This document shows, one piece after another, positions 3,960 through 36,149 of a stretch of DNA of 53,625 nt. Origin of the DNA: Betaproteobacteria bacterium Ga0077540 (GTDB lineage: Bacteria; Pseudomonadota; Gammaproteobacteria; Burkholderiales; Methylophilaceae); the NCBI GenBank assembly GCA_001464125.1, contig LNEP01000005.1:1-53625 (forward strand), in the 5' to 3' direction. Below the pieces are notes generated by a model that did not search any database, was not told the origin of the DNA, and saw only the letters and a list, made by a program, of their open reading frames with translations. Every line of letters starts with the position of its first letter. Position 1 is the first letter of the stretch. The translations under genes were made by a program, and so were the position numbers.

Positions 3960-5327
3960 TTAACTTGATACTTTCTTAACGATACGAAGATTTGTCATTT
4001 CGGGTGAAAACTTAATCTGAGCTTGTTCTAGTATCCAAGTTTCTATTTTTTCATGCCACATCCGCAATAAATCCAATGGACGACGACGATAATGCTTTTC
4101 AGCAATTGCACTTGGCTTCTGCCCCATAATCTGGGCCACTATTCCCTCTGGAACTTCAATCCATTCAGCAAGTGAGCCGAAAGACCGTCTAAGTCCATGA
4201 ACTGATAAGTCTGGCAATCCTGCAGCATTTAATGCCCTCTTATGTGCTTGTTTAGGCTCCTCAATGTGTCCAGTTGCAGCTGAAAGACTAGAAAAAACCC
4301 ACTCATTACGCTTTGGAAGAGATCTCAATAAATTTGCAACATATTGAGTTAATGGAATTGTTCTTTCACCTTCCACCTTATCTCGTATTGTCATACTTAA
4401 CCATTTAAAATCGACGTCAACCCATCGTAATTCTGCAAGTTCTCGTCGTCTTGCACCTGTGAGTAATAATGATTGAAGATATGCAGATTGAATGGGGTTT
4501 TGGATGCGTGCAACTGCAGAAAACCATAAAGCTAACTGCTCGCGCTGCAGACAATCACCTTTTTTCGCATTACTGCTGGGCAGTTCATCACGCACTTGCC
4601 GAGCTGAACAAGCTCCGTTGGGTATCAATCCAGTGTACTCATCTTGCGAGTTACACCAGCTAACAAAACCAGATAGCAAACGAAAGGCTAATGCTGCACG
4701 TGTAGGTCTAGTTTCAGCTTCCTTTGCAAGCCACACAGCAATCCGTGTTGCATTTAAATCTGACAGTCGAACATTGAGTAGTGATGCTAAAGGTCCGGCC
4801 TCTGTTAAGCCCTTACCACGTAACTTTTTAACCCCACCCGGATGAGCAATATTTTGATGGTCTCTTATACTCCACTCACTCCAACGTTTACGACGAGCCT
4901 CTATATAGATTGGCCATACCTTGCCAAGCGTTAGCGAGTCTTGTTTTTCTTGAATTATTTTAGCCTCTAATTCAGCTTTTCTTGATTGCACTTTAGCCTC
5001 ATCTTTAGCGATTTGATCTGCTTTGACTTGGCGAGGATCTATACCTCTGTTAGTCATTGCCTTTAAACTAACCGCTTCAGCACGTGCTTCAGAAATGCTG
5101 TAATTACTAATATTACCAATAGTGATTCGGATAGTTTTGTTATTAAGTGAAGTTTCAAATATATATGACTTTGCTCCTTTGGATGTAACACGCAAACCAA
5201 ACCCAACAGTTTTAGCATCCCAATATATAGACTGAGCTTTACCTTCAACACATTCAAATGATGCTACAGCTTCCCAGGTGAAGTTTTTTTTCTTGGGTTT
5301 TATTTCGTTTGAAGCATGATTAGTCAT
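3960..5327 (-). CDS. P4-type tyrosine recombinase (island integrase)
   Basis: A 455-residue phage/island integrase that would catalyse site-specific insertion and excision at a tRNA gene. N-terminal DUF4102 arm-binding domain about 25-100 (IYWDAKTVGFGLRV), a charged linker, core-binding domain about 135-230, and catalytic domain about 255-420. Visible catalytic residues are R293 (TGARRREL), K318 region (IRDKVEGERTIPL), H377 and R380 (HGLRR), and Y413 (EKHYRRR). The residue that is normally His or Trp in the fifth active-site position reads Gln (IMGQKPSA, Q403), which may lower activity. The gene runs away from the att scar at 5486-5535, with its start 160 bases from it, a usual layout for island integrases. 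Frame is intact over full family length. Confidence 0.93.
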   Translation of the reverse strand: MTNHASNEIKPKKKNFTWEAVASFECVEGKAQSIYWDAKTVGFGLRVTSKGAKSYIFETSLNNKTIRITIGNISNYSISEARAEAVSLKAMTNRGIDPRQVKADQIAKDEAKVQSRKAELEAKIIQEKQDSLTLGKVWPIYIEARRKRWSEWSIRDHQNIAHPGGVKKLRGKGLTEAGPLASLLNVRLSDLNATRIAVWLAKEAETRPTRAALAFRLLSGFVSWCNSQDEYTGLIPNGACSARQVRDELPSSNAKKGDCLQREQLALWFSAVARIQNPIQSAYLQSLLLTGARRRELAELRWVDVDFKWLSMTIRDKVEGERTIPLTQYVANLLRSLPKRNEWVFSSLSAATGHIEEPKQAHKRALNAAGLPDLSVHGLRRSFGSLAEWIEVPEGIVAQIMGQKPSAIAEKHYRRRPLDLLRMWHEKIETWILEQAQIKFSPEMTNLRIVKKVSS

Positions 5328-5360: not shown

Positions 5361-5485
5361 AATTATAGCAACATGAAGATATATTAATCAACATTAGAAA
5401 ATTATAATATTTAAATAACTATATGTTTTATATATAATTTATTTATTTTACAAACAAAAATCAACACTAATAAATACAATTACAT

Positions 5486-5535
5486 CAGGATTCATAATCC
5501 TGGGGTCGAGGGTTCAAGTCCCTCTTTCACCACCA
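5486..5535 (+). repeat. tRNA 3' half (anticodon CAT), attachment-site scar
   Basis: Fifty bases fold as the 3' half of a tRNA: anticodon arm CAGGA/TCCTG with loop TTCATAA (anticodon CAT, Met or the Ile2 type), variable GGGTC, T arm GAGGG/CCCTC with loop TTCAAGT, acceptor strand TTTCACC, then ACCA. No matching 5' half (expected GGTGAAA and a D arm) precedes it; AT-rich DNA does. This is what remains at the far end of an element that inserted in a tRNA gene by crossover near the anticodon. The whole tRNA should lie to the left of the window. The integrase next door supports this. Confidence 0.85.
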
Positions 5536-5541
5536 ATAAAG

Positions 5542-5574
5542 ACGCCCCTTTCGAGAGATTGGGGCGTTTTTCTT
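5542..5574 (+). terminator. Rho-independent terminator after the tRNA scar
   Basis: ACGCCCC (5542-5548) pairs with GGGGCGT (5561-5567) and is followed by TTTTCTTT. It lies where the native tRNA terminator should be, so the DNA just right of 5535 was probably the original downstream flank of the tRNA. Confidence 0.8.
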
Positions 5575-5647
5575 TGTGTTACTTTCTCATTAATTTTATA
5601 TTTAAATCCAGCTCTTTAACCACTTCAAATTATGTGAGGTAATTATT

Positions 5648-5830
5648 ATGGATATCGATAGAATCATTAGAATGAAAGAACTAACAAGTATCGTAGGTCT
5701 TTCAAGATCTACTATTTACAGACTAATTCAAGAGGATAAATTTCCTAAGCAAATTCACTTATCAGTCCGCACTGCAGGTTGGAGGCTTAGTGTAATTAAT
5801 GAGTGGATAAATCAGAAAGAAACTATTTAG
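5648..5830 (+). CDS. alpA: AlpA-family regulator
   Basis: A 60-residue DNA-binding protein of the AlpA/phage_AlpA type: MKELTSIVGLSRSTIYRLI is a MerR-like helix-turn-helix, followed by the usual beta-wing with FPKQIHLS and a Trp-containing WRLSVINEWI end. Such proteins control excision and integrase expression in P4-like islands. A Shine-Dalgarno GAGG lies about eight bases before the ATG. It stands to the right of the att scar, so it either belongs to a second, decayed element between here and the tRNA-Phe-like scars or was left behind after a rearrangement. No integrase accompanies it on this side. Confidence 0.85.
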   Translation: MDIDRIIRMKELTSIVGLSRSTIYRLIQEDKFPKQIHLSVRTAGWRLSVINEWINQKETI

Positions 5831-5903
5831 AAATACAGAGAACATCACAAACCAAAACAGTTGGTAGCGTGATTGAATTAGTAGGTGTCAAACCAATTGA
5901 CCA

Positions 5904-5984
5904 ATTAAAATCCGCGTGTCGGCAGTTCGATTCTGCCCCCGGCCACCAGCATTTAGAAAGCTCACAGCAATGTGGGCTTTTTTA
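5904..5984 (+). repeat. tRNA-Phe-like 3' end plus terminator, copy A
   Basis: A headless tRNA 3' end: TAAAATCCGCGTGTC, T arm GGCAG/CTGCC with loop TTCGATT (5921-5937), acceptor strand CCCGGCC and ACCA (5945-5948). The segment through the T arm matches what I know of betaproteobacterial tRNA-Phe. It is followed by AGCATTTAGAAAG and a terminator hairpin ending in TTTTTTA (5957-5984). Copies B (about 8500-8540) and C (10699-10763) resemble it, C including the terminator. Interpreted as an attachment-site scar. Confidence 0.7.
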
Positions 5985-6024
5985 TTGACCTCTAGTCAAC
6001 TCACCACAATAACCGGCAAGTCTT

Positions 6025-7038
6025 CTACCACAGATACCCAATACTGAATAACAAGGTTTTATCGGTGCGTTTTCTTCCTTCGGCAGGCAAATTAGCATAG
6101 TCAACATTTAGCTGGGTAGATGCATTTAAATTGTTTGCAATCGGCACACGCAAGCCCGTTTTGCTAAATACCAGAGTGTTTTCAACATCTTCCATGCTAA
6201 CTAGAATCTCATGTTGGTGAAAAAACTTAACCTTATTAAAAACCAGTTGATCGTATTTGAGCGCCCAACGGCCACTTGAATATCTATCATCCTCGGCTTG
6301 TTTAAAGTCTGTACTGATATAGTTAACGCCCGCTTCAACAGATAAATTTAGACTTTCTGTCTCATACACCTGATACCCTGAACCAATACCAGCACTTGAC
6401 CTGAGATTAATATCGCGAAATTTATCGTTCTCAAGTGCGCCAGTTGCGTATAGATATAACTGTTTGTTTAGAAAGTGGTCGTATTGCGTATAGCCTTTGC
6501 TGTTAAATGCAGTACTTTCGTTGTTTGCACTGGCTCTGTTTGCAAAGGCTCCGATGGTGTATCGATTTTGCTTGGTGCGTGCAACGCCTTCCACATCAAA
6601 TCTTATTTGGCTGTTATCGGTATTCCCAGAGGTAGCAGCACCACCTACATTGGCATAACCTGACCAATCAACGCCATGACCAGATACTGCTGCACTTGGA
6701 TTAATGTAGGCTAAATCCTTTAAATCGATGTCTGTGTTGGTATTTAAGCCAGTGAGATTCACTATTGCTCGGCCATCTTCAGCGGCTTGAATTTCACCGT
6801 TAAAACTTGTGTCATTCGCCAACATCACTTTTACGGGTTTGTCGGTGCTTAGGCTGGAAATATCTGGCCAATTAATATTAATTTCTCCTGCGTATTGCGT
6901 TTGAAAGACCAATTTGTCGGTCTCTTTTTTGACGACGGTCCCAGAGAGGATATCGCCATTTTTAAGTTTGACGGTATCAGCGACTGCTGGGGTATTGAAT
7001 AGTATGGATATGGTGGCAATGGTTTGAATAAGTCTCAT
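6025..7038 (-). CDS. DUF481 outer-membrane beta-barrel protein (YdiY-like)
   Basis: An outer-membrane protein of the DUF481/YdiY salt-induced porin-like family, 337 residues from the ATG at 7038. That start is chosen because AGGGAG precedes it and because it opens a clean signal peptide (MRLIQTIATISILFNTPAVA, cleavage before DTV); the frame also extends 12 codons upstream. After the signal come SH3-like beta repeats (KLKNGDILSGTVV, ITWP-like INWPDISSLSTD) and from about residue 125 a barrel of about ten amphipathic strands (NVGGAATSGNTDNSQIRF) ending in the terminal aromatic FSIGYLW recognised by the BAM machine. Role of the family is not settled. It stands alone, convergent to the AlpA segment. 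Confidence 0.85.
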   Translation of the reverse strand: MRLIQTIATISILFNTPAVADTVKLKNGDILSGTVVKKETDKLVFQTQYAGEININWPDISSLSTDKPVKVMLANDTSFNGEIQAAEDGRAIVNLTGLNTNTDIDLKDLAYINPSAAVSGHGVDWSGYANVGGAATSGNTDNSQIRFDVEGVARTKQNRYTIGAFANRASANNESTAFNSKGYTQYDHFLNKQLYLYATGALENDKFRDINLRSSAGIGSGYQVYETESLNLSVEAGVNYISTDFKQAEDDRYSSGRWALKYDQLVFNKVKFFHQHEILVSMEDVENTLVFSKTGLRVPIANNLNASTQLNVDYANLPAEGRKRTDKTLLFSIGYLW

Positions 7039-7633
7039 TGATCTCCCTAAAATGAATGATGTTAAACAATGCACATAGATAAATCTTGATGTGCAGTTTT
7101 GATGGGGACTTAGTTTTTAATGGGCGGCGATTTGACCGAGAATAGGAAAGAAAACTGACCTTCCTATTTACATGACTGCATTGATGTTTAAAAGTTTAGA
7201 AAGATTTAAAAGCGTGGGTAGCCCTGTAATCAAATATCTCGCTAGTTAATGATTAAGGTTGCTGTAGGAAATGGAATGTTTAGCGTGACTATGTAACTGT
7301 CAGGCTTTTTTGTATCTACTTTAAGTTTTCAAAGCCGAGAAAATGAACTGCAACCCCTCTTCTATCTTGCTTAAATTCTAATCGCTTAATTGTCGATAAA
7401 ATATCAACTATGGTTATTTATTAACATATAAATTACATCCGTAAATTTTATTTTAAAATATTTGTCTTTTAAATCATTTAGTTACACATTTACTTTGCGC
7501 GATAAGTTCTGGCGCATTATCTGCTTTAGCATACATAACACTAATATTCCTTAGTTGCACAAGTCAGCACGTGTAGATTTAACTTTATAAAAATCGGTTA
7601 AATCAAACGTTAAGCCTGAAGAGGTGAATGATA
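7039..7633. other. Intergenic region between two divergent genes
   Basis: About 590 AT-rich bases that must hold the promoters of the genes at 6025-7038 (minus) and 7634-8446 (plus). Visible structure: a perfect 8-base inverted repeat AATAGGAA/TTCCTATT with a 12-base loop (7141-7168), and AATGTTTAGCGTG (7275-7287), which recurs exactly at 10801-10813. A 25-codon ATG frame at 7172-7249 has no ribosome site and I do not call it. Confidence 0.5.
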
Positions 7634-8446
7634 ATGCTCAACAATCAAAGTTTAATGTTACTTTCTAAGTTCGCACTAAAAGCCAAGAAGCATTTAGGCC
7701 TGATTAAGGTTATGCAGATGATTAATAGCGAGCAATATGCATATAAAACCTTAACGCAAGCAGCATTGTCCGATGACAAAGATCTTGTCGATTTAACGAA
7801 AAGAATTTGTCATGAATTGCATGTTGGAATGGATGTTGTTGATGCTATCGACATGTATATTGAAAGTATAAAAGCAATTAATAATGACGAAGATTATCTT
7901 CATGAAGTTAAATATTTTTTAATTAAGCTTACTACCCATTTGTATGGCATTTCTATCAATGGAGAAACCTACCGTCAGGCTGTAGATAATGTACTTATAA
8001 ATGTTGACGATAAAGAGAAGCCTAGGTACATAACGCTAGCGCGGAAATTCTATGGTTTTTGGAAAATAAGAAATGATGGTTTTAGTAAGAAATTCAATCC
8101 TCTCAATGAGAAAATGATGGCTCAGAAAGAAGATTTTATAAAGTTATGGGCAAGTATTGATCATGAGTTTTTAACCAACTTAGAGAGTTGGCCACTAAAC
8201 CTTTATGTGGAGTCTATCCGTCAGAGGGGGCTGATGGAAGAGGAAATCAATATCTGCCGGAGAGTAGCTAAAGTGGTTATTATTGAGCTTAGAAGTGAAC
8301 AAAATAGCGATGAAAATGCTTATCGTAATGTGATTGATAACATCCAAATTCTATTTGAACGAGACGATTTAAAAGGCTTGTTTCTCACTGTTTCACGAGA
8401 TTTTTACCACTTTTGGATGGGTACAGATTCCAAAGTGGCAAATTAG
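7634..8446 (+). CDS. Orphan protein with tandem duplicated domain
   Basis: A 270-residue soluble helical protein of no family I know. The ATG at 7634 is preferred over the one at 7628 because GAGG at 7621-7624 then has a nine-base spacing. The protein carries an internal repeat with a 116-118 residue period: YIESIKAINNDEDYL (about 75) matches YVESIRQRGLMEEE (about 191); ETYRQAVDNVLI matches NAYRNVIDNIQI; ARKFYGFWK matches SRDFYHFWM. Each half is therefore a copy of one roughly 90-residue, all-helical module. There is no signal peptide, no obvious catalytic motif and no partner gene. It sits between two tRNA-like scars, so it is probably cargo of an integrated element. A toxin-immunity or phage-related role is possible but not shown. 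Confidence 0.75.
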   Translation: MLNNQSLMLLSKFALKAKKHLGLIKVMQMINSEQYAYKTLTQAALSDDKDLVDLTKRICHELHVGMDVVDAIDMYIESIKAINNDEDYLHEVKYFLIKLTTHLYGISINGETYRQAVDNVLINVDDKEKPRYITLARKFYGFWKIRNDGFSKKFNPLNEKMMAQKEDFIKLWASIDHEFLTNLESWPLNLYVESIRQRGLMEEEINICRRVAKVVIIELRSEQNSDENAYRNVIDNIQILFERDDLKGLFLTVSRDFYHFWMGTDSKVAN

Positions 8447-8499
8447 TGACAACTCGTTTATTTTACAAATTAACTCTCATATCATTTGAGTTTGCATCG

Positions 8500-8540
8500 C
8501 GACTGATCGATTCTCAACCGGGGCACCAGCATTTAAAAAG
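8500..8540 (+). repeat. tRNA-Phe-like 3' end, decayed copy B
   Basis: GATCGATTCTC, then GGGGCACCAGCATTTAAAAAG. The stretch CACCAGCATTTARAAAG (8524-8540) is shared with copy A (5944-5960), and TCGATTCT matches the T loop, but the T stem no longer pairs and the following terminator is lost. It is the most eroded of the three scars. Confidence 0.55.
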
Positions 8541-8741
8541 TCATCTACAAACATCCACCTTAGATCATTTCAAGCTAGATTTATGTTTTAAACCTGTAAT
8601 ATTATTTGCTCAAAACTGCAAAATATAGCTTTCACTGATTTCCATCTTTAAGCAAACAACATAACTGCTTCTTTTGTAAATATTAGTTAGCGTTTATGCT
8701 AAATTTTAAATGAACATTCAACTTCAATTGAGAAAATCAAT

Positions 8742-9227
8742 ATGATTTCAGCTCCATTACCTGAAAATGAAGATAGAAGGCTACAAGTACTGAGAGACTT
8801 GCTTGTACTAGATACGACCACTGAAGAGAGATTTGACCGCATTACTAAATTCGCGAGTTTTGAATTTGATGTGCCGATTGTTCTTATCTCTTTGATCGAT
8901 AAAGATAGGCAGTGGTTTAAATCATCTGTTGGTTTAGATGTATGTAGCACATCAAGAGATATTGCTTTTTGCAGTCATGCAATATTACAAGACAATATTA
9001 TGGTTGTTGAAGATGCGACCAAAGATGAACGCTTTTTTGATAACCCGCTAGTGATGGGTGAGCCATATATTAGATTTTACGCAGGTGCACCCATCATATT
9101 ACCCACCGGTGAATCGATAGGTACTTTATGCTTGATAGATCAGAAGACAAGAACTCTTGATAATCTTGACATGTCGATATTATCTTCACTCAGGCAGATG
9201 GTAACAGCTGAACTGTTATCAAAATAA
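8742..9227 (+). CDS. Stand-alone GAF-domain sensor protein
   Basis: A 161-residue protein consisting of a single GAF domain, of the subclass common at the N-terminus of betaproteobacterial sensor kinases and diguanylate cyclases: N-terminal PLPENEDRRLQVL and LDTTTEERFDRIT, then SLIDKDRQWFKSS, IAFCSHAIL, DERFFDNPLV, IRFYAGAPI and IGTLCLID. No output domain is fused; the frame ends naturally after the last GAF helix. The start has only a weak ribosome site. The next gene, 33 bases downstream on the same strand, encodes a receiver-like domain, so the two may act as a pair. The ligand is unknown. It may also be a remnant of a larger signalling protein. Confidence 0.85.
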   Translation: MISAPLPENEDRRLQVLRDLLVLDTTTEERFDRITKFASFEFDVPIVLISLIDKDRQWFKSSVGLDVCSTSRDIAFCSHAILQDNIMVVEDATKDERFFDNPLVMGEPYIRFYAGAPIILPTGESIGTLCLIDQKTRTLDNLDMSILSSLRQMVTAELLSK

Positions 9228-9260
9228 AAGCGCGCACGTATCAATAGTTCAGATATAAAT

Positions 9261-9668
9261 ATGGCACAGGTAAACAATAATAACTCGGGATGTATGCCAC
9301 TTGTTTTGATGCATGACTATGAATACATGATTAGAAAAACATTTGGTTTATTTGCCTTAGAAACCAATTTAGCTAGCGTAACTGAAAGCTCTGAAATCAA
9401 CCAAGCAAGGGAGAGTTTAATCACCCAACCTTTTGATTTGATCATTTTGGGGTTTGATGGCTGGTTAGAAGAGATAGGTTTGATTCAATTGATTAGAGAA
9501 GATATGACTCTGTCAAAGAAGGATATACCTATCATCGCAGTTTTATCCAATATAACTGCGACTCAAATTGATAATTTGAAGCAGCTCAATGTCACCGAAA
9601 TAGTTTTAAAACCAGCTCGCATTAAAACCATACAAAAAGCATTCTTAAATGCTTACAAGCAAGTCTGA
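9261..9668 (+). CDS. Atypical receiver-domain protein without phosphoacceptor Asp
   Basis: A 135-residue single domain with the CheY-like pattern: beta1 PLVLMHDYEY with only part of the acidic pair (H18-D19), beta3 FDLIILGFDGW where the phosphoacceptor position reads Gly (G64) and an Asp follows two residues later (D66), beta4 IPIIAVLSN, and the conserved beta5 Lys in IVLKPAR (K117). Loss of the acceptor with retention of the fold is known in atypical receivers that signal by protein contact or ligand instead of phosphate. It follows the GAF gene closely and probably shares its transcript. Assignment to the family is by pattern; the functional statement is inference. Confidence 0.65.
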   Translation: MAQVNNNNSGCMPLVLMHDYEYMIRKTFGLFALETNLASVTESSEINQARESLITQPFDLIILGFDGWLEEIGLIQLIREDMTLSKKDIPIIAVLSNITATQIDNLKQLNVTEIVLKPARIKTIQKAFLNAYKQV

Positions 9669-10026
9669 ACGATATCTCCATCGGGCGATAAATAGCCACA
9701 CAACCATAGCCTATTCATCCTATTAAAGTTTACGCTCAGACTTTAATATGAAGCTAATCTCAGGAGTTCTCATTGATGTTATTGAGCTTACTAAACTACA
9801 AAATTAACGTAGATAATTGTCAGCCTCGCAATTGAGCTAAAAAATATTTCCGAATATAAAGCTTGCTATATACAAGTTAGTAGTCCATAGTGAGGTCCGG
9901 TGACTAACAAGTCCTCAAGTTTTTGTCAGCTTTAGTTTCTTTTTTAAGTCTCTTCTCTCTTTCATTCCTGTCTTGTTTCTCGCCTAACTTTAGGCAAATG
10001 CCTCATTATTTATAAAAGGAATTAAC
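9669..10026 (+). promoter_or_regulatory. Leader region of the cold-shock gene
   Basis: About 360 bases without a gene. A hairpin TGAGG (9891-9895) / CCTCA (9913-9917) followed by AGTTTTT may end the upstream transcript or belong to the leader. The final 90 bases are pyrimidine-rich (repeated TCTCTTTC-like sequence) before the ribosome site AAAAGGA at about 10014-10020. Long structured leaders are usual for csp genes, but I cannot show thermosensing here. Confidence 0.35.
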
Positions 10027-10233
10027 ATGGCTACAGGCAATGTAAAATGGTTTAACGACGCTAAAGGTTTTGGTTTCATCACACAAGATAACGGCGGCGC
10101 AGATTTGTTCGCTCACTTTTCAGCAATTGCTTCAGACGGCGGATTTAGAAGCCTGACCGAAGGTCAACGTGTAACGTTCGATATCACTACAGGTGCAAAA
10201 GGCGACCAAGCATCCAATATTAGACCTCAATAG
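10027..10233 (+). CDS. Cold-shock protein, CspA family
   Basis: A 68-residue single cold-shock domain (OB fold) that binds single-stranded RNA/DNA and melts mRNA structure. RNP1 is intact (KGFGFI, residues 14-19) and RNP2 reads DLFAHF where most members have VFVHF. The N-terminus [11 protein letters not shown] and end NIRPQ are typical for the family. AAAAGGA precedes the ATG. It is followed by a strong terminator, so it is monocistronic. An IF-1 paralogue follows directly, a pairing that makes sense for translation in the cold. Whether expression is cold-inducible cannot be read from the sequence. Confidence 0.95.
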
Positions 10234-10268
10234 TTTAATACTTTAGGTGTCTATTAAATCGCCTAGTT

Positions 10269-10300
10269 AAAAACCCAGTCAAGCTGGGTTTTTTTATTTT
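10269..10300 (+). terminator. Rho-independent terminator of the csp gene
   Basis: AAACCCAG, loop TCAA, then CTGGGTTTTTTTA. Perfect stem with a long T run, 35 bases after the csp stop codon. Confidence 0.9.
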
Positions 10301-10318
10301 CATAGCAAAGGGTACGCA

Positions 10319-10579
10319 ATGGCAAAAGAAGAATTAATAGAGATGGATGGTGTTGTTGATGAAGTACTTCCTGATTCCCGTTTTAGGGTAACACTTGATA
10401 ACGGACATAAGCTGGTTGCTTACACTGGTGGCAAAATGCGCAAGAACCATATCCGTATCTTGGCTGGAGACAAAATCTCATTAGAGTTTTCTCCTTATGA
10501 CTTTTCTAAAGGACGCATTATGTTCAGGCATCTTGAGAAACGCCAGGCATTTGCAAGCAAGCCAATAAGACGACATTAA
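10319..10579 (+). CDS. infA: Translation initiation factor IF-1 (accessory paralogue)
   Basis: An 86-residue S1/OB-fold IF-1: [22 protein letters not shown], then the family core [16 protein letters not shown] (usual GKMRKxxIRIxxGD). IF-1 sits in the ribosomal A site and helps IF-2 and IF-3 select the initiator tRNA. The C-terminus is longer than in the standard 72-residue protein and ends in basic residues ([13 protein letters not shown]); the customary DLTKGRI reads DFSKGRI. AAAGGG precedes the ATG. Because it stands in an accessory region and not beside ribosomal protein genes, it is probably a second copy; betaproteobacteria often have several. Confidence 0.92.
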
Positions 10580-10698
10580 TATTGAATTATGAATATTCTT
10601 TGGCGTGGCAAATATGTCATCCTAAAGAGAATTTTGGCGGGGGAAAGAAAATCAATTTATTGTTTAATAAACGTTTTTTCTTGTAAAAAACACACGTC

Positions 10699-10763
10699 TC
10701 GGCAGCTCTATTCTGCCCTAGTCACCAGTATTTAGAAAGCCCACAGAAATGTGGGCTTTTTTA
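10699..10763 (+). repeat. tRNA-Phe-like 3' end plus terminator, copy C
   Basis: CTCGGCAGCTCTATTCTGCC (T arm with stem GGCAG/CTGCC kept and loop CTCTATT changed), a shortened acceptor strand CTAGTC, ACCA, then GTATTTAGAAAG and the hairpin GCCCACA/TGTGGGC with TTTTTTA. The terminator differs from that of copy A at two positions only. It marks the probable right boundary of the accessory region. Confidence 0.65.
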
Positions 10764-10978
10764 TGCCTAAAATTTTTGAAAACATTCCGACTGTGCTAAC
10801 AATGTTTAGCGTGCGATACTTAATTGTCCTGAAGACTAACGCTGAATAACCACCAGTTCAACATAAAACTAAATTAATCAAGTTAAAGCGCACAATCTCA
10901 GTTTTCTTACAGCCTTGCTTTAGTCTGGACAATGTTTGTTGTTTTAATCAACAAAGTTAGGATTCATGGAAGGCAGAA

Positions 10979-11049: not shown

Positions 11050-12486
11050 ATGAAAAGTCAATTATTGCCTATCGCAGTAGATTTAGACGGTACTTTGTTA
11101 TACACAGATACACTACATGAGTCCGCCGTACATTTGTTGCATCACCATCCCATGCAAGTGCTGCTGTTACCTATCTGGCTAATCAAAGGCAAAGCCTATC
11201 TTAAACAAAAGCTATCTACTTACGTCACGTTAAACCCCGCCACACTGCCTTACAACCTTCAGCTGGTTGAATGGATAAAAGAAAAAAAAGCATTAGGTCA
11301 TCGGATAATATTGTGTACAGCAGCTGACAGCAAAAATGCCAACAGCATAGCTACTCACCTCAATATATTTGATGAAGTCATGTCAAGCGATGAAAAGACG
11401 AATCTTGCAGGTGAATATAAAAGGGAGGCACTTGTTCAGCGATTTGGGGAGCAAGGATTCATTTATGCGGGCAACTCTAATGCAGATTTAAAAGTATGGA
11501 AAAGTGCAGCTAGTGCGATTGTAGTAAATGCCGATAAAAATTTAGTTAAAAAGAGCTCAGAATTAGTCGAAGTTGATAAAGTCTTGCCTGCGCAACCTAT
11601 TACATTGAAAAATTGGCGGCGTGTATTCCGTGTGCATCAGTACCTCAAGAATCTGCTTTTGTTTGTACCTTTAGCTACAGCACACCAATTTGGTAATGTT
11701 GAAGCACTGTCCTCATTGCTGTTGGCTTTTATTTCTTTCAGCCTGTGCGCTTCTAGTGTTTACATTACAAATGATTTGATGGATCTTGAAAGTGACCGCC
11801 AACATCTAAATAAAAGGTTTCGTCCGTTTGCTGCTGGTTCAGTACCCATCAGTTATGGAGCCATACTCGCCCCCCTCAGCCTTATCACCAGTTTTATACT
11901 TGCGTTGTTTGTGGGAAGTACTTTTCTTTTATGGCTGATTGCCTATTACATTGTTACTGTTGCTTACTCTCTAAGATTAAAACGCTATGCGATGGTTGAT
12001 TGCTTGACCTTGGCAGGCCTTTATACTTTAAGAATAATCGCAGGTGCAGCAGCAGTTTCAATTCCGTTGTCATTCTGGTTATTAGGGTTTTCTATCTTTC
12101 TATTTCTCTCGCTAGCGTTTGTTAAAAGGTATGCTGAGTTACAAATACAAATTGCCCACAATAATACACAAGCTCATGGACGCGGCTACCTCATTGAAGA
12201 TGCGCCGTTAATACAGACATTGGGCGTTACATCTGGCTACGCTTCTGCACTAGTGTTAGCACTTTACTTGCAGAGCGAAGCGGTGACGATTTTATATAAT
12301 AATCCGCAAGTTATCTGGGGCTCTATACCCCTAATTTTGTTTTGGATAAGCTGGGTCTGGCTGAAAGCACACAGGGGACAAATGCATGATGACCCGATTG
12401 TTTTTGCGCTACGCGATAAAAGCAGTTTAATAGTAGGTGCGATGTTTATTGCAATATTCATTATTGCTAAACCCTGGGGCAGTTAA
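11050..12486 (+). CDS. HAD phosphatase-UbiA prenyltransferase fusion (DPPR synthase-like)
   Basis: A 478-residue fusion. Residues 1-175 are a HAD-type phosphatase (DLDGT at 11-15, ILCTAA about 87-92, GNSNADLKVW about 141-150). From about 188 it is an integral-membrane UbiA prenyltransferase with the binding motif NDLMDLESDRQHLNKRFRP (from 241) and the second Asp region YSLRLKRYAMVD (306-317), with seven to nine membrane spans. In the mycobacterial pathway UbiA (Rv3806c) moves phosphoribose from PRPP to decaprenyl phosphate and a phosphatase then removes the 5-phosphate; the fused HAD could do that second step. It is the first gene of a five-gene overlapping operon, and its stop overlaps the next start by one base. 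Substrate assignment follows from context. Confidence 0.85.
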   Translation: MKSQLLPIAVDLDGTLLYTDTLHESAVHLLHHHPMQVLLLPIWLIKGKAYLKQKLSTYVTLNPATLPYNLQLVEWIKEKKALGHRIILCTAADSKNANSIATHLNIFDEVMSSDEKTNLAGEYKREALVQRFGEQGFIYAGNSNADLKVWKSAASAIVVNADKNLVKKSSELVEVDKVLPAQPITLKNWRRVFRVHQYLKNLLLFVPLATAHQFGNVEALSSLLLAFISFSLCASSVYITNDLMDLESDRQHLNKRFRPFAAGSVPISYGAILAPLSLITSFILALFVGSTFLLWLIAYYIVTVAYSLRLKRYAMVDCLTLAGLYTLRIIAGAAAVSIPLSFWLLGFSIFLFLSLAFVKRYAELQIQIAHNNTQAHGRGYLIEDAPLIQTLGVTSGYASALVLALYLQSEAVTILYNNPQVIWGSIPLILFWISWVWLKAHRGQMHDDPIVFALRDKSSLIVGAMFIAIFIIAKPWGS

Positions 12487-12923
12487 TGACAAAACCGCAT
12501 AAAACGGCAATGTCCATTGCTGTGCTCTATATACTATTTGCCTGCCTCTCAACCTTCATCAATATTGGTAGCCAGATGCTGTCAATGTTGGCATACAAAG
12601 GGCCGTATGCGGTAGAAGTTTCCATACTCGTAGGTACAGCCGCCGGTCTGCCGCTGCGTTACCTTTTAGAGAAAAGATATATATTTGCTTTCAAATCTGA
12701 CAATATCGGACATGATGGTCGTTTGTTTATTCTATACAGTTTTATGGGGGTATTTACCACCGTAATATTTTGGGGCACAGAGTACGCATTTCACTTGCTA
12801 TTTTCTAGTGAGTCGATGCGTTATCTGGGTGGTGTGATTGGATTGGCCATCGGCTTTTATGTCAAATATCGCCTCGATAAAAAGTATGTGTTTGTCAACA
12901 GCAATAAACAGGTGATGGTTTAA
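12486..12923 (+). CDS. GtrA-family membrane protein
   Basis: A 145-residue protein with four predicted membrane helices and the charged ends typical of GtrA proteins (GLPLRYLLEKRYIFAF early, FYVKYRLDKKYVFV at the end). GtrA proteins are small partners of lipid-linked sugar pathways, often proposed as flippases or as anchors for the enzymes. The mycobacterial counterpart Rv3789 stands directly before dprE1, exactly as here. Start and stop overlap the flanking genes by one base each (TAATG), so translation is probably coupled. Confidence 0.85.
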   Translation: MTKPHKTAMSIAVLYILFACLSTFINIGSQMLSMLAYKGPYAVEVSILVGTAAGLPLRYLLEKRYIFAFKSDNIGHDGRLFILYSFMGVFTTVIFWGTEYAFHLLFSSESMRYLGGVIGLAIGFYVKYRLDKKYVFVNSNKQVMV

Positions 12924-14218
12924 TGCTGATACATGGCTGGGGCAACTATCCAAAAATAGAGGCTGAGGTAATGAATCCTTTGTCTGTAGCTAGTTCCAAG
13001 CATGCCATTCAAAAAACTCCCATCATTGCTCGGGGCATGGGCAGAAGTTACGGAGATAGTGCCAATTCACAGGTTGTTTTACAGACCACGTATCTGGATC
13101 ACTATATTACTTTTGATGCAGTCCAAGGCACGCTAACTTGTGAGTCAGGTGTCAAACTTAGAGAAATACTGAATCTGATTGTACCCAAAGGCTGGTTCTT
13201 ACCTGTCACCCCTGGGACTAGCTTTGTGACCGTAGGTGGAGCAATTGCAAGTGATGTGCATGGCAAAAACCACCATGCTGCAGGCACCTTCTGCCAGCAT
13301 GTCACCTCGATTACCATGCTGCTTGGCACTGGTGAAATCGTCACTACCTCACCCTTGCAAAAGCCTGATTTGTTTCATGCCACCGCAGGTGGCATGGGTT
13401 TAACGGGCGTAATCCTGACAGCCACCATAAAACTCATACCTATTGAGTCTGCTTTTATTACACAAAAGACCATCAATACAGGGTGTTTGGAAGCGGCTTG
13501 CGATGCATTCGAAGCACACACTAAATCAACGTACAGCGTGGCATGGATTGATTGCCTTGCAACTGGCAAAAGCTTAGGACGAAGTGTGCTGATGGTTGGC
13601 GAACATGCAGATAATGGTGGACTGAATCTAACCATCAAAGATCCAATTACCGTGCCTTTGCACACCCCCGCAGCGTTACTTAACAGTATGACCATGCGAG
13701 CATTTAACAATACTTACTACGCAAAAGCTCCACACAACAAAATACAAACCGTACCTTTGATGCCTTATTTTTATCCATTGGATGTAATAGGTGGGTGGAA
13801 CAAGCTCTACGGAAAAGCTGGATTTGTGCAGTATCAGTTTGCTTTACCTAAAACTGATGGCGTGGCTAACATGCGCAGCATTCTTAGTAAAATTAGCCAA
13901 AGTGGTCAGGGTTCGTTTTTAGCAGTGCTTAAGCAATTTGGGCCAGCAAACAGAAATCTTCTATCGTTCCCTATTGAAGGATATACGTTAGCTCTTGATT
14001 TCAAAATGTCCACAACGACTATTGAATTATTAAACAAGCTTGACGATGAGGTGGCGGGCATGGGCGGTCGAATCTACTTAGCAAAAGATGCAGTGATGCG
14101 AGAAACATCATTCAAGGCAATGTACCCTAATTGGGAACAGTTTGATGCTGTGCGCCAAAAGTATGGCGCCATCGGTAAATTTGCTTCTGATCAATCTAGA
14201 CGTATGGGGTTAGCATGA
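12923..14218 (+). CDS. DprE1-like FAD-dependent oxidase
   Basis: A 431-residue flavoprotein of the FAD_binding_4/ALO family that resembles decaprenylphosphoryl-ribose 2'-oxidase (DprE1). FAD motifs: ARGMGRSYGD (36-45), PGTSFVTVGGAIASDVHGKNHH (97-118, the HGKNHH being characteristic of the DprE1 group), HATAGGMGLTG (152-162). C-terminal part has YFYPLDVIGGWNKLYG and GFVQYQFALP, and ends SDQSRRMGLA. It would oxidise the 2'-OH of the lipid-linked ribose to the keto intermediate. The next gene is the matching reductase and overlaps by four bases (ATGA). Substrate is inferred from family and neighbours. Confidence 0.88.
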   Translation: MLIHGWGNYPKIEAEVMNPLSVASSKHAIQKTPIIARGMGRSYGDSANSQVVLQTTYLDHYITFDAVQGTLTCESGVKLREILNLIVPKGWFLPVTPGTSFVTVGGAIASDVHGKNHHAAGTFCQHVTSITMLLGTGEIVTTSPLQKPDLFHATAGGMGLTGVILTATIKLIPIESAFITQKTINTGCLEAACDAFEAHTKSTYSVAWIDCLATGKSLGRSVLMVGEHADNGGLNLTIKDPITVPLHTPAALLNSMTMRAFNNTYYAKAPHNKIQTVPLMPYFYPLDVIGGWNKLYGKAGFVQYQFALPKTDGVANMRSILSKISQSGQGSFLAVLKQFGPANRNLLSFPIEGYTLALDFKMSTTTIELLNKLDDEVAGMGGRIYLAKDAVMRETSFKAMYPNWEQFDAVRQKYGAIGKFASDQSRRMGLA

Positions 14219-14952
14219 AGAATATCCTTATAATTGGTGCAACCTCTGCTATTGCCGAGCATTGTGCAAGACTTTGGGCTGCAAGAGCAGATGCGCTATA
14301 TTTAGTAGCACGAAGTGAAGAGCGCCTTCAAACCATGGCCAGAGACCTAGCAATTCGTGGTGCAGCGCAAGTGGGCACTTACTGCGCAGATCTTAATGAT
14401 TTGCAAGTCCATGCCAACATAATCGATGCTGTAGAGATGGCATTAGGTGACGTAGACATCGTACTGATCGCGCACGGAACACTACCCAATCAAAAAACCT
14501 GTGAACAAAGCGTTGAAGATACGCTCATGGAAATAAAGACGAATGCTATATCCACGATTAGCTTGCTAACAATCATAGCAAATCGTTTTGAAGCAAAACA
14601 AAAGGGAACCATTGCGGTGATTTCTTCTGTTGCAGGTGACAGAGGCAGAGCCAGTAATTATATTTATGGTAGTTCAAAAGCCATGGTGACTGCGTTTACA
14701 TCAGGCCTGCGTCAACGCTTACATAAATCAAATGTGGCAGTAATCACTATTAAGCCAGGCTTTGTTGAAACCCCTATGACAGCCGAATTTAAAAAAGGTC
14801 TGCTTTGGGCAAAGCCTGCAACAGTAGCATCTAAAATTGTAAAAGCAATTGATCAACATAAAAATGAAGTCTATGTGCCAGGATTTTGGCGACTCATTAT
14901 GTATGTGATTAAAGCAATTCCTACGAACCTTTTTAATAAAATGCGACTATGA
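14215..14952 (+). CDS. DprE2-like short-chain dehydrogenase
   Basis: A 245-residue SDR with Rossmann motif GATSAIAE (8-15), AHG (86-88), and the active-site set S138, Y151, K155 (ISSVAGDRGRASNYIYGSSK region). The C-terminus has a hydrophobic stretch (FWRLIMYVIKAIP) that could tie it to the membrane, as in DprE2. With the DprE1-like oxidase it would complete the 2'-epimerisation of lipid-linked ribose to arabinose by NAD(P)H-dependent reduction of the 2'-keto sugar. It overlaps both neighbours by four bases, so the pair is translationally coupled. A general SDR role cannot be excluded by sequence alone, but the context is strong. Confidence 0.85.
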   Translation: MKNILIIGATSAIAEHCARLWAARADALYLVARSEERLQTMARDLAIRGAAQVGTYCADLNDLQVHANIIDAVEMALGDVDIVLIAHGTLPNQKTCEQSVEDTLMEIKTNAISTISLLTIIANRFEAKQKGTIAVISSVAGDRGRASNYIYGSSKAMVTAFTSGLRQRLHKSNVAVITIKPGFVETPMTAEFKKGLLWAKPATVASKIVKAIDQHKNEVYVPGFWRLIMYVIKAIPTNLFNKMRL

Positions 14953-16406
14953 ATAATTCCACTCATAAATTTACTCATCCTAGCACTTGGAATATATCGA
15001 CCTATATTGCAATATTTCTTGCTGTTGGTGGAATACTAGCTAGCTCTCTATGGATTTTCTCAACATACTCATACTGGATTGACGAGCTGTACAGCGTTAC
15101 TGCTGGTAATGAGACATTTTCTTCGCTCTACTCTATGATACTCTGGGATGTTCATCCCCCGCTCTATCAATTATTACTCAAAGTGTGGATATTAGCATTT
15201 GGAGACAATGAACCGACTACACGCTTTTTAAGTTGGATTTTTGCCAATGCCGCCGCACTTTACTTTTATAAGTCCACGTTGAGGTACGGAAAACTTTTCG
15301 GAATGGTGGCAATCCTTTTCTTCCTTACGAATACTCTTTTTGCATATTATTCAAATGAAACTCGCTCCTACGCGATGACTTTGTTCTTCACTACGATCTT
15401 AGCTGTCAATTATCCCTCAAATAAATCAAACCCCTCTTTAACCTTTTTTGTTGCATGTATCTTACTTTCATTAACCCATTATTTTGGGCTGATACTGGCT
15501 GGCGTTGCCCTAGCCATCTGTTTCTTACAAAACATAAAACATCCAAAATCGCTTTTGTTTATATTCATTACAGGTCTTATATGCCTGCTATGGCCCATCT
15601 ATCATATGGTTTATGGAGAGATACTTAACAAAACAAATGGGAATTTTTGGATTCAAGTGAATGGCATTTTTTCCACGCTTGAACTGGCGGCTTCTGGCTA
15701 CCTTCCAAAAACAGGCCAATTGGGTGGTGTTATTCTCATTCTTGGATTGTTATCAGGAATCGCCCTAGCCCTCAACAGCAAACCAAAAGCAGATAATAAT
15801 TTGAACAGTGTAGTTTCTATGACGCTCAATTCAAGTCTTATATTATTTATTTTCATAGGGTTAATAGCAATCATAGACATATGGTCGCCAATGTCGACAA
15901 GTAGAAATTACATTGTATTACTTCCACTCCTTGGAATTTCTATTGCAGGTGTCATCACCATCCTATCAAATCAGCACCCATCACATTCAAAAAAAATATT
16001 AGCGGTGTTTTTTGTATTCTGTGCGCTAAGTCTTATTAAGTCTTTCCATGTAGTGCATAAGAAATCAACCGCAAAGGAGGACTGGCGTGGTGCTTCTCTT
16101 TATCTCATAAAGAATCACCAAGATAAATCCATATACCATACATCGGCTAGTGAAAATGACGCTTGGCTTCACCTTATTTTTAATTTTTATTTAAAAAAGT
16201 TTAGTGATGGTTCAATAGAAGCAGCACCTTATGTTCTAGACAAAACTGTTTTGGACAAACCTGCTGCTATTCTTTTTGGTCACGACAATTTAATGGCTGA
16301 TGAGATTGAACGAAAAATGACAGAAATAGGGGCTAAGCAAAGCTATAAGAGCAACACCCCCATAGAAATTAAAAACGAATCAGTTGGGGTTTATGTAGTC
16401 GAATAG
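14949..16406 (+). CDS. GT-C family glycosyltransferase (putative arabinosyltransferase)
   Basis: A 485-residue membrane glycosyltransferase of the GT39/ArnT-like PMT_2 kind: about ten membrane helices, the first periplasmic loop with the acidic pair in YWIDELYSV (D45, E46) and WDVHPPLYQLLLKVW (D67, HPP), both usual in GT-C enzymes that use polyprenyl-phosphate sugars, and a soluble C-terminal part from about residue 360. As the last gene of the operon it would transfer the lipid-linked pentose to an acceptor outside the inner membrane, by position the counterpart of mycobacterial AftA (Rv3792). The acceptor is unknown: lipopolysaccharide, a polysaccharide or pilin are all open. Confidence 0.8.
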   Translation: MNNSTHKFTHPSTWNISTYIAIFLAVGGILASSLWIFSTYSYWIDELYSVTAGNETFSSLYSMILWDVHPPLYQLLLKVWILAFGDNEPTTRFLSWIFANAAALYFYKSTLRYGKLFGMVAILFFLTNTLFAYYSNETRSYAMTLFFTTILAVNYPSNKSNPSLTFFVACILLSLTHYFGLILAGVALAICFLQNIKHPKSLLFIFITGLICLLWPIYHMVYGEILNKTNGNFWIQVNGIFSTLELAASGYLPKTGQLGGVILILGLLSGIALALNSKPKADNNLNSVVSMTLNSSLILFIFIGLIAIIDIWSPMSTSRNYIVLLPLLGISIAGVITILSNQHPSHSKKILAVFFVFCALSLIKSFHVVHKKSTAKEDWRGASLYLIKNHQDKSIYHTSASENDAWLHLIFNFYLKKFSDGSIEAAPYVLDKTVLDKPAAILFGHDNLMADEIERKMTEIGAKQSYKSNTPIEIKNESVGVYVVE

Positions 16407-16456: not shown

Positions 16457-16528
16457 GTGAAGTCCATAACTGACATCGCATCAAATGAAAATCCTGTGTA
16501 CAATCATGCACATAATCAGGGATATATC

Positions 16529-26618: not shown

Positions 26619-27362
26619 CTAACTACACACTGTGCATTTAGGGTCGCGCGCCAGTTTAATGGTGCGCCATTCTGCGGTAAGTGCATCTAGTAATAGCAAA
26701 CGGCCCTGTAGCGTTTCTCCAACATTGAGTATCAACTTAAGCACTTCCGCCGCTTGCGCGGTCCCTATCATCCCCACCAGCGGCGCAAACACGCCGTTGT
26801 CAGCACAGCGCATTTCTTGGTCACTGCCTACATCTGGGTACAAACAGTGGTAACAAGGCGTGGTTTCATTTCGAAAATCAAATACACTAATTTGCCCTTC
26901 AAACCGAATTGCAGCGCCTGAAACCAAGGGTGTTTTGTGCTGAAAACACAAGCGATTAAGCGCATAGCGCGTAGCAAAGTTATCACTGCAATCCACCACC
27001 ACATCGGCTTGCGCCACCAGCGTAGCCATTTCAGCTTCGGTGGATTTTGTTTGTACCGCTTGCACAGTCACTTCTGGATTGAGTTCAAATATGGCTTGTT
27101 GCGCGGATACTGCTTTATTGATGCCCACAGACTGTGTGGTATGAATGACTTGGCGTTGTAAGTTGGTTAAATCCACCGCATCAAAATCACAAATGGTGAG
27201 CGTGCCCACACCGCTCGCCGCTAAATACATAGCCACTGGCGAACCCAAACCACCAGCGCCGACAATCAGCGCATGACTTTGAATGAGTTTTTCTTGGCCA
27301 TCGTATTCAATTTGTGGCAATAAAATATGGCGGCTGTAGCGTAACAGTTGATTGTCGTTCAT
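26619..27362 (-). CDS. moeB: Molybdopterin-synthase adenylyltransferase MoeB/ThiF family
   Basis: A 247-residue E1-like enzyme that adenylates the C-terminal Gly-Gly of MoaD or ThiS. Features: N-terminal RYSRHILLPQIEYDGQEKL, ATP-binding GAGGLGSP (about 36-43), the Asp/Arg/Gln set in DFDAVDLTNLQRQV, the DCSDNFATRYALN stretch, and four zinc cysteines (CYHC and CTVC). There is no C-terminal rhodanese domain. Its ATG follows the stop of the upstream prepilin gene with no gap (TAAATG), so it is transcribed as the last gene of the pilus run. This position is probably an accident of gene order, since its job is cofactor synthesis; ThiF activity is the main alternative. Confidence 0.92.
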   Translation of the reverse strand: MNDNQLLRYSRHILLPQIEYDGQEKLIQSHALIVGAGGLGSPVAMYLAASGVGTLTICDFDAVDLTNLQRQVIHTTQSVGINKAVSAQQAIFELNPEVTVQAVQTKSTEAEMATLVAQADVVVDCSDNFATRYALNRLCFQHKTPLVSGAAIRFEGQISVFDFRNETTPCYHCLYPDVGSDQEMRCADNGVFAPLVGMIGTAQAAEVLKLILNVGETLQGRLLLLDALTAEWRTIKLARDPKCTVCS

Positions 27363-28034
27363 TTAAGGCAATCTTCCTGCAGTGACCATCCGATTCATAA
27401 TGGAGCCAGTGGACAACCAGCTCACTATGTCATCATAAGCGTTGGGCCCATCTATAAAACCATGATTGACAAATGTACCATCGCCATCTGCATTTTCTTG
27501 CTCATCCAAACTTATTGGGGGAAAGACTGCTCCATTCTTCCCGCGAGAGAAGACAAGCATGGGCACATTGGCTGACTCGGTTACCACGCAAGCATTATCA
27601 GCACACACTCGAATAATTCCGGCACCAGCGCCCACGGTATTTAATGTAAAGTTAGCAGTAAATGCATTATTCACCCTATATTGATAAGCTCTATCCCAAG
27701 GGTCTGTTGATTTTAGCCCTAGCGTAACCCATGGCAAATTCCCTCCTGTGGATGAGGTTGTATTGGCATTGGCGCATGCGTCCTCAAGTCCATCACCACT
27801 AGTATCAGGACATGGTAATCGGCCATTGATGACCGCAAATCCTAATAAAACACCCTTAATTTCGTCTAAGTCTCTCCGCGCTTCTGCATTTCTACTTTGG
27901 TCTAATTGCGCTGATAGTGGCGTAAGAAATGCAGATACCAAAAAGCCAACGATGACCAGTACAATGGCCAACTCGACTAGCGTAAAACCCTTTGAGGCAA
28001 ATGAAATACTTTTTTGACTTGTCTTCATAAACAT
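27363..28034 (-). CDS. Type IV prepilin-like protein (MSHA-type cluster)
   Basis: A 223-residue prepilin: short basic leader MFMKTSQKSISFASKG, cleavage before FTLVELAIVLVIVGFLVSAFL with the expected Glu at +5, then a globular domain with paired cysteines (LPCPDTSGDGLEDAC; RVCADNACVV). The second Met at 28028 could also start it. PilD-type peptidase would cut and methylate it. It is longer than a typical major pilin (about 150-170), so it is more likely a minor pilin or tip component. It overlaps the upstream GspK/PilX-like gene by ten bases and precedes moeB. No specific msh letter can be assigned by sequence reading. Confidence 0.85.
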   Translation of the reverse strand: MFMKTSQKSISFASKGFTLVELAIVLVIVGFLVSAFLTPLSAQLDQSRNAEARRDLDEIKGVLLGFAVINGRLPCPDTSGDGLEDACANANTTSSTGGNLPWVTLGLKSTDPWDRAYQYRVNNAFTANFTLNTVGAGAGIIRVCADNACVVTESANVPMLVFSRGKNGAVFPPISLDEQENADGDGTFVNHGFIDGPNAYDDIVSWLSTGSIMNRMVTAGRLP

Positions 28035-29224: not shown

Positions 29225-29675
29225 TTCTTCCTTGCTCGCCCTGCACGGATGTACGCATTTCTCTTACGCGGTTGGTCTCGGGGTCATACGTTTGGCCTGC
29301 TTTTAAGGTGAGTACTTTACCCGAAGCATTGATTTGAATCGGTACCCGGTTTTGTTGGTGAGGTAGTTGCCCAACAGCAATCTCTCCATTTTTTGTACCT
29401 TCTTGAATCGCCTGTTGGTTAATCCAAACCGTGCCTTGCTTACCATCACTGCGCTTCACATAGCCTTGTAGCTCCACCGCTTTAGGCAAGGCCAACACTT
29501 CAACAGATTGAGGTGTTGATTCAACTTTCTGCGGCACAATAATTTTTCTAGTTTGGCGTAAATAATCCAAATTGGCGCGCTCTTTGGGAGTACTAAACAA
29601 TCGTCCCAGTGTTTCATCTGCGCACGTCAATTGGCAGTTGGCTAACATGAGCATGCTGATTACTAAGCGTTTCAT
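29202..29675 (-). CDS. mshK: MshK-like periplasmic pilus assembly protein
   Basis: A 157-residue exported protein: signal peptide MKRLVISMLMLANCQLTCA, then DETLGRLFSTPKERANLDYLR, a motif that also marks MshK-like and PilP-like proteins, and a beta-rich C-terminal part (LQGYVKRSDGKQGTVWINQQAI, LTLKAGQTYDPETN) reminiscent of the PilP/GspC homology domain that touches the secretin. The start overlaps the MshJ-like gene by four bases. It would link inner-membrane MshJ/MshI to the secretin. Letter assignment rests on position and size. Confidence 0.7.
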   Translation of the reverse strand: MKRLVISMLMLANCQLTCADETLGRLFSTPKERANLDYLRQTRKIIVPQKVESTPQSVEVLALPKAVELQGYVKRSDGKQGTVWINQQAIQEGTKNGEIAVGQLPHQQNRVPIQINASGKVLTLKAGQTYDPETNRVREMRTSVQGEQGRIGDEGQP

Positions 29676-30289: not shown

Positions 30290-30291
30290 TG

Positions 30292-33093: not shown

Positions 33094-33106
33094 GTCTGCT
33101 TAACTG

Positions 33107-34813: not shown

Positions 34814-34818
34814 GATTA

Positions 34819-36132: not shown

Positions 36133-36149
36133 ACCGGTTGATGGTGCAA

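What the first reader, a model, noticed from the sequence alone, without database searches (positions are those of the whole stretch)
11050..16406. A complete lipid-linked D-arabinofuranose operon in a betaproteobacterium, with mycobacterium-like gene order
Five genes overlap by one to four bases: HAD-UbiA fusion, GtrA, DprE1-like oxidase (HGKNHH motif), DprE2-like SDR, GT-C transferase. From family knowledge, Mycobacterium tuberculosis has the order GtrA (Rv3789), dprE1 (Rv3790), dprE2 (Rv3791), aftA (Rv3792), with the UbiA phosphoribosyltransferase (Rv3806c) elsewhere. Here all steps from PRPP to a transferred D-Araf appear packed in one unit, with a phosphatase fused to the prenyltransferase that could replace the separate mycobacterial one. 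The polymer that receives the arabinose in a Gram-negative cell is unknown.
Basis: partly seen in the sequence, partly recalled or inferred. Interest (0 to 1): 0.8.

Follow-up and report, generated by a model that had tools for sequence, protein, structure and literature searches.

The report
Mobile D-arabinofuranose surface-modification operon
A five-gene operon at a tRNA-linked insertion site of a Methylophilus-like bacterium carries the genes predicted to make a lipid-carried form of the sugar D-arabinofuranose and likely attach it to the cell surface; such gene sets are already known outside the mycobacteria, and what is new is mainly the predicted attaching enzyme, for which our sequence searches found no characterised relative.

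Summary
In detail: five same-strand genes at 11050-16406 overlap by 1, 1, 4 and 4 bases and encode a HAD-UbiA fusion, GtrA, a DprE1-like oxidase, a DprE2-like reductase and a GT-C-fold membrane protein. The surprise mostly goes. The pathway is published in Gram-negatives (Pseudomonas pilins, Azorhizobium noeCHOP, Citrobacter, where a HAD-UbiA fusion was assayed), and the four-gene donor order occurs in 17 of 89 loci examined here. What remains new: (1) the operon sits in a variable tRNA-Phe hotspot and was found in none of 21 other genomes of its genus (3 of them under 90% complete); (2) its GT-C subfamily lies beside the cassette in only 1 of 89 loci (Gallionellaceae), while other cassettes carry membrane proteins without detectable similarity nearby; (3) no polysaccharide cluster adjoins it, so the acceptor is probably encoded elsewhere. 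Product and acceptor are untested. New member of a known kind, moderate interest.

The parts
11050..12486 (+). HAD-UbiA fusion: predicted polyprenyl-phosphate phosphoribosyltransferase plus 5'-phosphatase
11080..11094 (+). HAD motif I DLDGT (predicted nucleophile Asp11)
   Evidence: D11, K124 and D146 each in 28 of 28 fused homologues, D13 in 27, T15 in 26; Citrobacter ORF15 D18 is the tested equivalent (PMC11127046)
11770..11796 (+). UbiA NDxxDxxxD motif (N241, D242, D245, D249)
   Evidence: each residue in 71 of 71 loci with a UbiA match; N247, D248, D251, D255 of ORF15 matter for its activity
12486..12923 (+). GtrA-family membrane protein, predicted flippase of the lipid-linked sugar
   Evidence: gtrA_1 173 bits, cut-off 50; flipping not tested
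12923..14218 (+). DprE1-like FAD oxidase
   Evidence: NF053785 433 bits (cut-off 500) vs next family 65; PDB sequences: DprE1 286 bits vs next protein 50
13259..13276 (+). HGKNHH motif (residues 113-118)
   Evidence: H, G, K, N in 89 of 89 loci; the last two His in 87 and 88 of 89
14215..14952 (+). DprE2-like SDR reductase
   Evidence: PRK07102 329 bits (cut-off 267), DprE2 model 189 (cut-off 250); Y151 and K155 in 83 of 83 loci with an SDR match
14949..16406 (+). GT-C membrane glycosyltransferase, predicted to transfer D-Araf to an unknown surface acceptor
10687..10764 (+). tRNA-Phe 3'-end repeat, left edge of the operon segment
   Evidence: 83.5% identical to 5907-5985 over 79 columns; intact tRNA-Phe genes at matching repeats in L141, L142 and L144
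5907..5985 (+). tRNA-Phe 3'-end repeat
8507..8540 (+). weaker tRNA-Phe 3'-end repeat (82% over 34 nt)
3960..5327 (-). tyrosine-type integrase of the stacked insertion site
   Evidence: Phage_integrase 51.6 bits and Arm-DNA-bind_3 47 bits
16471..16849 (+). conserved right flank (rhodanese gene), right edge of the insert
   Evidence: alignment with same-genus genomes G011 and G016 starts at 16471 and 16474

Best explanation
The operon encodes a gene set predicted to make polyprenyl-phosphate-D-arabinofuranose from PRPP and likely to transfer the sugar, outside the inner membrane, to a surface structure that is probably encoded elsewhere in the genome. Predicted steps: the UbiA domain transfers 5-phosphoribose from PRPP to undecaprenyl phosphate; the fused HAD domain removes the 5'-phosphate; DprE1 oxidises and DprE2 reduces C2, turning ribose into arabinose; GtrA flips the lipid-linked sugar to the periplasm; the GT-C transfers it. 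The acceptor is inferred, not shown; I commit to LPS (O-polysaccharide or core), as in gtr-type seroconversion islands (recalled), at about 0.45. The confidence below is for donor synthesis and transfer, not for LPS. I read the unit as a mobile surface-modification cassette in a tRNA-Phe hotspot whose donor genes are conserved and whose transferase is exchanged.
For: Gene calls and overlaps; family scores; catalytic residues kept in 71 of 71 UbiA, 28 of 28 HAD (D11), 88 of 88 DprE1 (K388, the K418 position; 1 of 89 not aligned there) and 83 of 83 SDR (Y151, K155) matches; structure models; DprE2 downstream of DprE1 on the same strand within 4 kb in 82 of 89 loci, and the full four-gene order in 17 of 89; the assayed Citrobacter HAD-UbiA fusion. 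Mobility: no DprE1 in 21 of 21 other genomes of the genus; the interval from tRNA-Phe to the rhodanese gene is about 6.5, 11 and 32 kb in G005, G016 and G011. Exchange: 54 membrane proteins from 43 of 89 loci, plus the window's, fall in 40 clusters, and the window's joins one other.
Against: No sugar, enzyme or mutant data for this organism. DprE1 and DprE2 score below the NCBIfam equivalog cut-offs (433/500, 189/250), as does the decaprenyl-P phosphoribosyltransferase model (143/207). The GT-C is nearer in fold to ArnT and PMT than to any arabinosyltransferase, so donor and acceptor are inferred from the operon. Most neighbouring membrane proteins were not shown to be GT-C: 2 of 10 scanned match PMT_2, one of them the L016 relative, and a crude motif was found in 6 of 55, the window and L016 included. 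In 46 of 89 loci no such neighbour was found. Distant GT-C relatives in 20 regions read from other genomes lie without the cassette. Nothing in the data picks LPS over a pilin.
Confidence: 0.8

Rival explanations
1. The operon arabinosylates a pilin (type IVa, or the MSHA-type pilus encoded 10 kb downstream), as Pseudomonas paraeruginosa does with island-borne D-Araf genes and TfpW.
For: Pilin arabinosylation with island-borne donor genes is documented (PMC12369383, passages); the genome has two tandem PilA-like genes and a third pilin; an MSHA-type cluster (MshL 269 bits, cut-off 250) lies at 26.6-38 kb; PMT, which modifies proteins, ties with ArnT as nearest fold.
Against: The transferase gene does not lie next to a pilin gene, and no transferase-like membrane ORF lies directly beside the pilins in the two regions read (judged by eye). 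No TfpW sequence was compared.
Confidence: 0.3
2. The operon arabinosylates an exopolysaccharide or outer-membrane glycoprotein rather than LPS or pili.
For: The genome has an exopolysaccharide-like cluster (judged by eye) near a second Wzy_C protein at C3:59207; D-Araf polysaccharide exists in another Gram-negative (Devosia submarina, PMC8707391, passages).
Against: No physical link between that cluster and the operon.
Confidence: 0.25
3. The FAD and UbiA proteins are an unrelated ALO-type oxidase and a quinone prenyltransferase, and the operon has another function.
For: The FAD protein matches Pfam FAD_binding_4 and, just below its cut-off, ALO.
Confidence: 0.03

Closest known systems
Pseudomonas (para)aeruginosa D-Araf genes PSPA7_6245-6251 (island RGP80) with TfpW
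   Same: UbiA-type donor synthesis of D-Araf on a genomic island of a Gram-negative (PMC12369383, passages; PMC11127046)
   Different: Kelly 2024 says its phosphoribosyltransferase lacks the HAD domain and needs a separate phosphatase; its transferase TfpW lies with pilA elsewhere
Pseudomonas syringae B728a homologue named by Kelly 2024
   Same: a synthase candidate with a fused phosphatase domain, predicted for pilin Araf
   Different: the phosphatase domain is C-terminal there, N-terminal here; no biochemical data there either
Citrobacter youngae three-component pentofuranose system (ORF12-ORF15, GT136; Kelly 2024)
   Same: N-terminal HAD phosphatase fused to the UbiA-type synthase, GT-C last step; the paper reports DprE1/E2 homologues in candidate systems with Araf
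   Different: MATE flippase there, GtrA here; ribose or xylose there; the GT-Cs were not compared
Azorhizobium/Rhizobium noeC(N)HOP Nod-factor arabinosylation
   Same: Gram-negative D-arabinofuranosylation operon with mycobacterial orthologues and a proposed transferase, NoeP, at its end (PMC5080398, PMC2443382, passages)
   Different: the proposed phosphatase NoeN is a separate gene; acceptor is a Nod factor
Mycobacterial Rv3806c / Rv3789-DprE1-DprE2-AftA
   Same: same chemistry and, for four genes, the same order (order recalled)

Membership tests
Lipid-linked D-arabinofuranose donor pathway | UbiA-type PRPP:polyprenyl-phosphate phosphoribosyltransferase | tested here: met
Lipid-linked D-arabinofuranose donor pathway | 5'-phosphatase | tested here: met
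Lipid-linked D-arabinofuranose donor pathway | DprE1 oxidase over curated cut-off | tested here: not met
   433 bits, cut-off 500; still the best family by 368 bits, with the active-site Lys and HGKNHH kept, so I call it DprE1-like
Lipid-linked D-arabinofuranose donor pathway | DprE2 reductase over curated cut-off | tested here: not met
   189 bits, cut-off 250; over cut-off for SDR PRK07102; overlaps the DprE1 gene, so I call it DprE2-like
Lipid-linked D-arabinofuranose donor pathway | product is polyprenyl-P-D-Araf | not testable with these tools
   needs enzyme assay or lipid analysis
Three-component pentofuranose system (Kelly 2024) | PRP(HAD)-UbiA synthase | tested here: met
   domain order HAD then UbiA
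Three-component pentofuranose system (Kelly 2024) | MATE flippase in the unit | tested here: not met
   the five genes include a GtrA protein and no MATE protein
Three-component pentofuranose system (Kelly 2024) | GT136 transferase | not tested
   no GT136 model or sequence was at hand
TfpW-type pilin arabinosylation | transferase gene next to its pilin gene | tested here: not met
   the operon is not at a pilin gene of the three found; the two pilin regions read have no such neighbour
TfpW-type pilin arabinosylation | sequence similarity to TfpW | not tested
   no TfpW sequence was fetched
Mycobacterial arabinosyltransferases (AftA/AftB/Emb) | fold or sequence specifically nearest to these | tested here: inconclusive

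The most novel reading that the evidence does not exclude
The GT-C founds an undescribed subfamily of D-arabinofuranosyltransferases that, together with a conserved four-gene donor cassette, forms a self-contained mobile unit: it needs only PRPP, undecaprenyl phosphate and a surface structure made by the core genome, and switches the coat of any recipient, probably against phages. Donor genes stay, acceptor-specific transferases are swapped.
Probability: 0.35. Interest if true: 0.55.

Novelty: new member of a known kind. Interest (0 to 1): 0.35.

Why it matters
D-arabinofuranose is often treated as a mycobacterial hallmark (recalled). The DprE1-DprE2 pair was found here in records titled Proteobacteria, Bacteroidetes and several other phyla, in about half of the loci beside membrane proteins that mostly lack detectable similarity to one another. 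If those are transferases, the cassette is a general module for changing the cell coat, and the unnamed transferases point to unknown arabinosylated glycans. At the place of mycobacterial Cys387 the relatives have Ala (84), Thr (3) or Ser (1) in 88 aligned of 89.

Tried and rejected
Rejected: an artefact of ORF calling (tight overlaps and conserved families agree). Rejected: ALO-type oxidase and quinone UbiA. Rejected: the operon as part of an O-antigen cluster here, because its neighbours are cold-shock-like and IF-1-like ORFs on the left (by eye) and rhodanese and DsrE2 genes on the right.

Led nowhere: the GT-C alignment in viral contigs gave 12 pattern matches and no relative; the GT-C in plasmids gave 3 records, at most 47% covered; DprE1 in phage records gave 1, 44% covered. 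The GT-C profile in 369 class, 399 order and 398 phylum genomes matched 1, 6 and 19 genomes, own included; the other matches were partial. These come to 22 hits in 21 other genomes; I read regions of 8 to 20 kb around 20 of the 22 (19 genomes; not G1066, G1154), and none of the 20 shows a cassette gene by tblastn. hhalign of the GT-C profile against five neighbouring proteins gave probabilities of 0.1 to 10.5% (against the HAD-UbiA protein, gave 0.6%). That test is weak: L015, which Pfam names PMT_2 at 112 bits, gave 0.1% too, so a remote common origin of the partners is not excluded. Promoter and terminator scans were no better than shuffles. Harvey 2011 (PMC3151058) is not held; I know it only through citing papers. 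No paper with both Methylophilus and DprE1 was found.

Adjacency means within 4 kb. Alignment A1 holds 56 of the 98 GT-C relatives plus the window; A2 holds 23 sequences from named loci, of 28 fused ones in all, plus the window. The GT-C homologue search scored only 7998 candidates. In the genus, G005, G018 and G019 are under 90% complete.

Full report
Five + strand ORFs at 11050-16406 overlap by 1, 1, 4 and 4 bases. Their families are a HAD-UbiA fusion (PRK08238, 655 bits, cut-off 351), GtrA (173, cut-off 50), a DprE1-like oxidase (433 bits; cut-off 500; next family 65), an SDR (PRK07102 329, cut-off 267; DprE2 model 189, cut-off 250), and a membrane protein without a Pfam or NCBIfam match at E 0.01. 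The window is a whole contig of a 2.33-Mb assembly, 88.6% complete. Its closest named NusA relatives are Methylophilus, a betaproteobacterium.

Earlier Gram-negative cases. P. paraeruginosa carries island-borne D-Araf genes for pilin glycosylation (PMC12369383, passages), and TfpW adds the sugar (PMC11841053, passages). Azorhizobium noeCHOP arabinosylates Nod factors, with noted mycobacterial orthology (PMC5080398 and PMC2443382, passages). Devosia makes a D-Araf polysaccharide (PMC8707391, passages).

Distribution. With 9 loci from unnamed related genomes, 89 loci were read. DprE2 lies downstream on the same strand within 4 kb in 82 of 89, a UbiA match within 4 kb in 71 of 89, a HAD-fused UbiA in 28 of 89, and the whole order HAD-UbiA, GtrA, DprE1, DprE2 in 17 of 89. 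Among plasmids, 64 records carry the oxidase at E 1e-40. Of three read, Rhizobium and Paracoccus have UbiA-GtrA-DprE1-DprE2 followed by an unnamed protein, and Azospirillum has an acyltransferase between the oxidase and the SDR. In the window's family DprE1 occurs in 8 of 187 genomes, own included, and in none of the 21 other genomes of the genus (three of the 21 are under 90% complete). The nearest oxidases are in another genus of the family (76%, G053) and in a MAG titled Porticoccaceae (64%, L013); a tree groups these with the window.

The insertion site. Copies of a tRNA-Phe 3' end lie at 5907-5985, 8507-8540 and 10687-10764. Intact tRNA-Phe genes with that end lie in G011, G016 and G005, about 32, 11 and 6.5 kb from the rhodanese gene; in the window itself no intact tRNA-Phe was found. 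An integrase gene is at 3960-5327. Homology to G011 and G016 starts again at 16471-16474, at the rhodanese gene, 65 bases after the GT-C. In G016 the gene on the other side of that edge is cyclopropane-fatty-acid-synthase-like; in G011 it is a 929-aa GGDEF-type sensor gene, then a cyclopropane-synthase-like one (all named by eye). The operon is thus cargo between the last tRNA remnant and a core gene.

Acceptor. No sugar-polymer cluster adjoins the operon in the window. The genome has two tandem pilin genes and a third, without a transferase-like gene directly beside them in the two regions read, two Wzy_C proteins over cut-off, and an MSHA-type pilus cluster in the window. I favour LPS at about 0.45 by analogy with island-borne gtr systems (recalled), then pilins (0.3), then other glycans (0.25). 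These figures are judgement.

Verdict. The pathway assignment is well supported by sequence and predicted structure; the surprise is small, since such operons are published and frequent in the loci read. The remaining interest is the variable transferase slot, the GT-C subfamily without a characterised relative, and the unknown acceptor.

Noticed in passing
26619-38042 (-): MSHA-type pilus cluster (MshL 269 bits over cut-off 250, MshE-type ATPase, GspF/GspG-like proteins), a possible acceptor source 10 kb from the operon.
   Followed up: partly
5484-10765: Stack of tRNA-Phe 3'-end repeats plus a tRNA-like 3' piece at 5484-5535 beside an integrase: several successive insertions at one tRNA site.
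   Followed up: partly
12923-14218: The place of mycobacterial DprE1 Cys387 is Ala357 here; in 88 aligned of 89 relatives it is Ala 84, Thr 3, Ser 1, never Cys (numbering counted by hand on the alignment).
   Followed up: yes
9857-10296 (+): cspA-thermoregulator-like leader (54.9 bits, below the gathering score 78) and a cold-shock-like ORF inside the island region.
   Followed up: no
L183, L029, L038: DprE1 and DprE2 are split by an insert: an acyltransferase gene in Azospirillum (L183), about 2 and 3 kb in L029 and L038, perhaps a further sugar modification.
   Followed up: no
G000:C1:155664: A second GT-C-like gene with PMT_2 (28.4 bits, cut-off 26.1) stands beside a GtrB-like and a GtrA-like ORF in the same genome (the two neighbours named by eye), perhaps a separate hexose system.
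   Followed up: no
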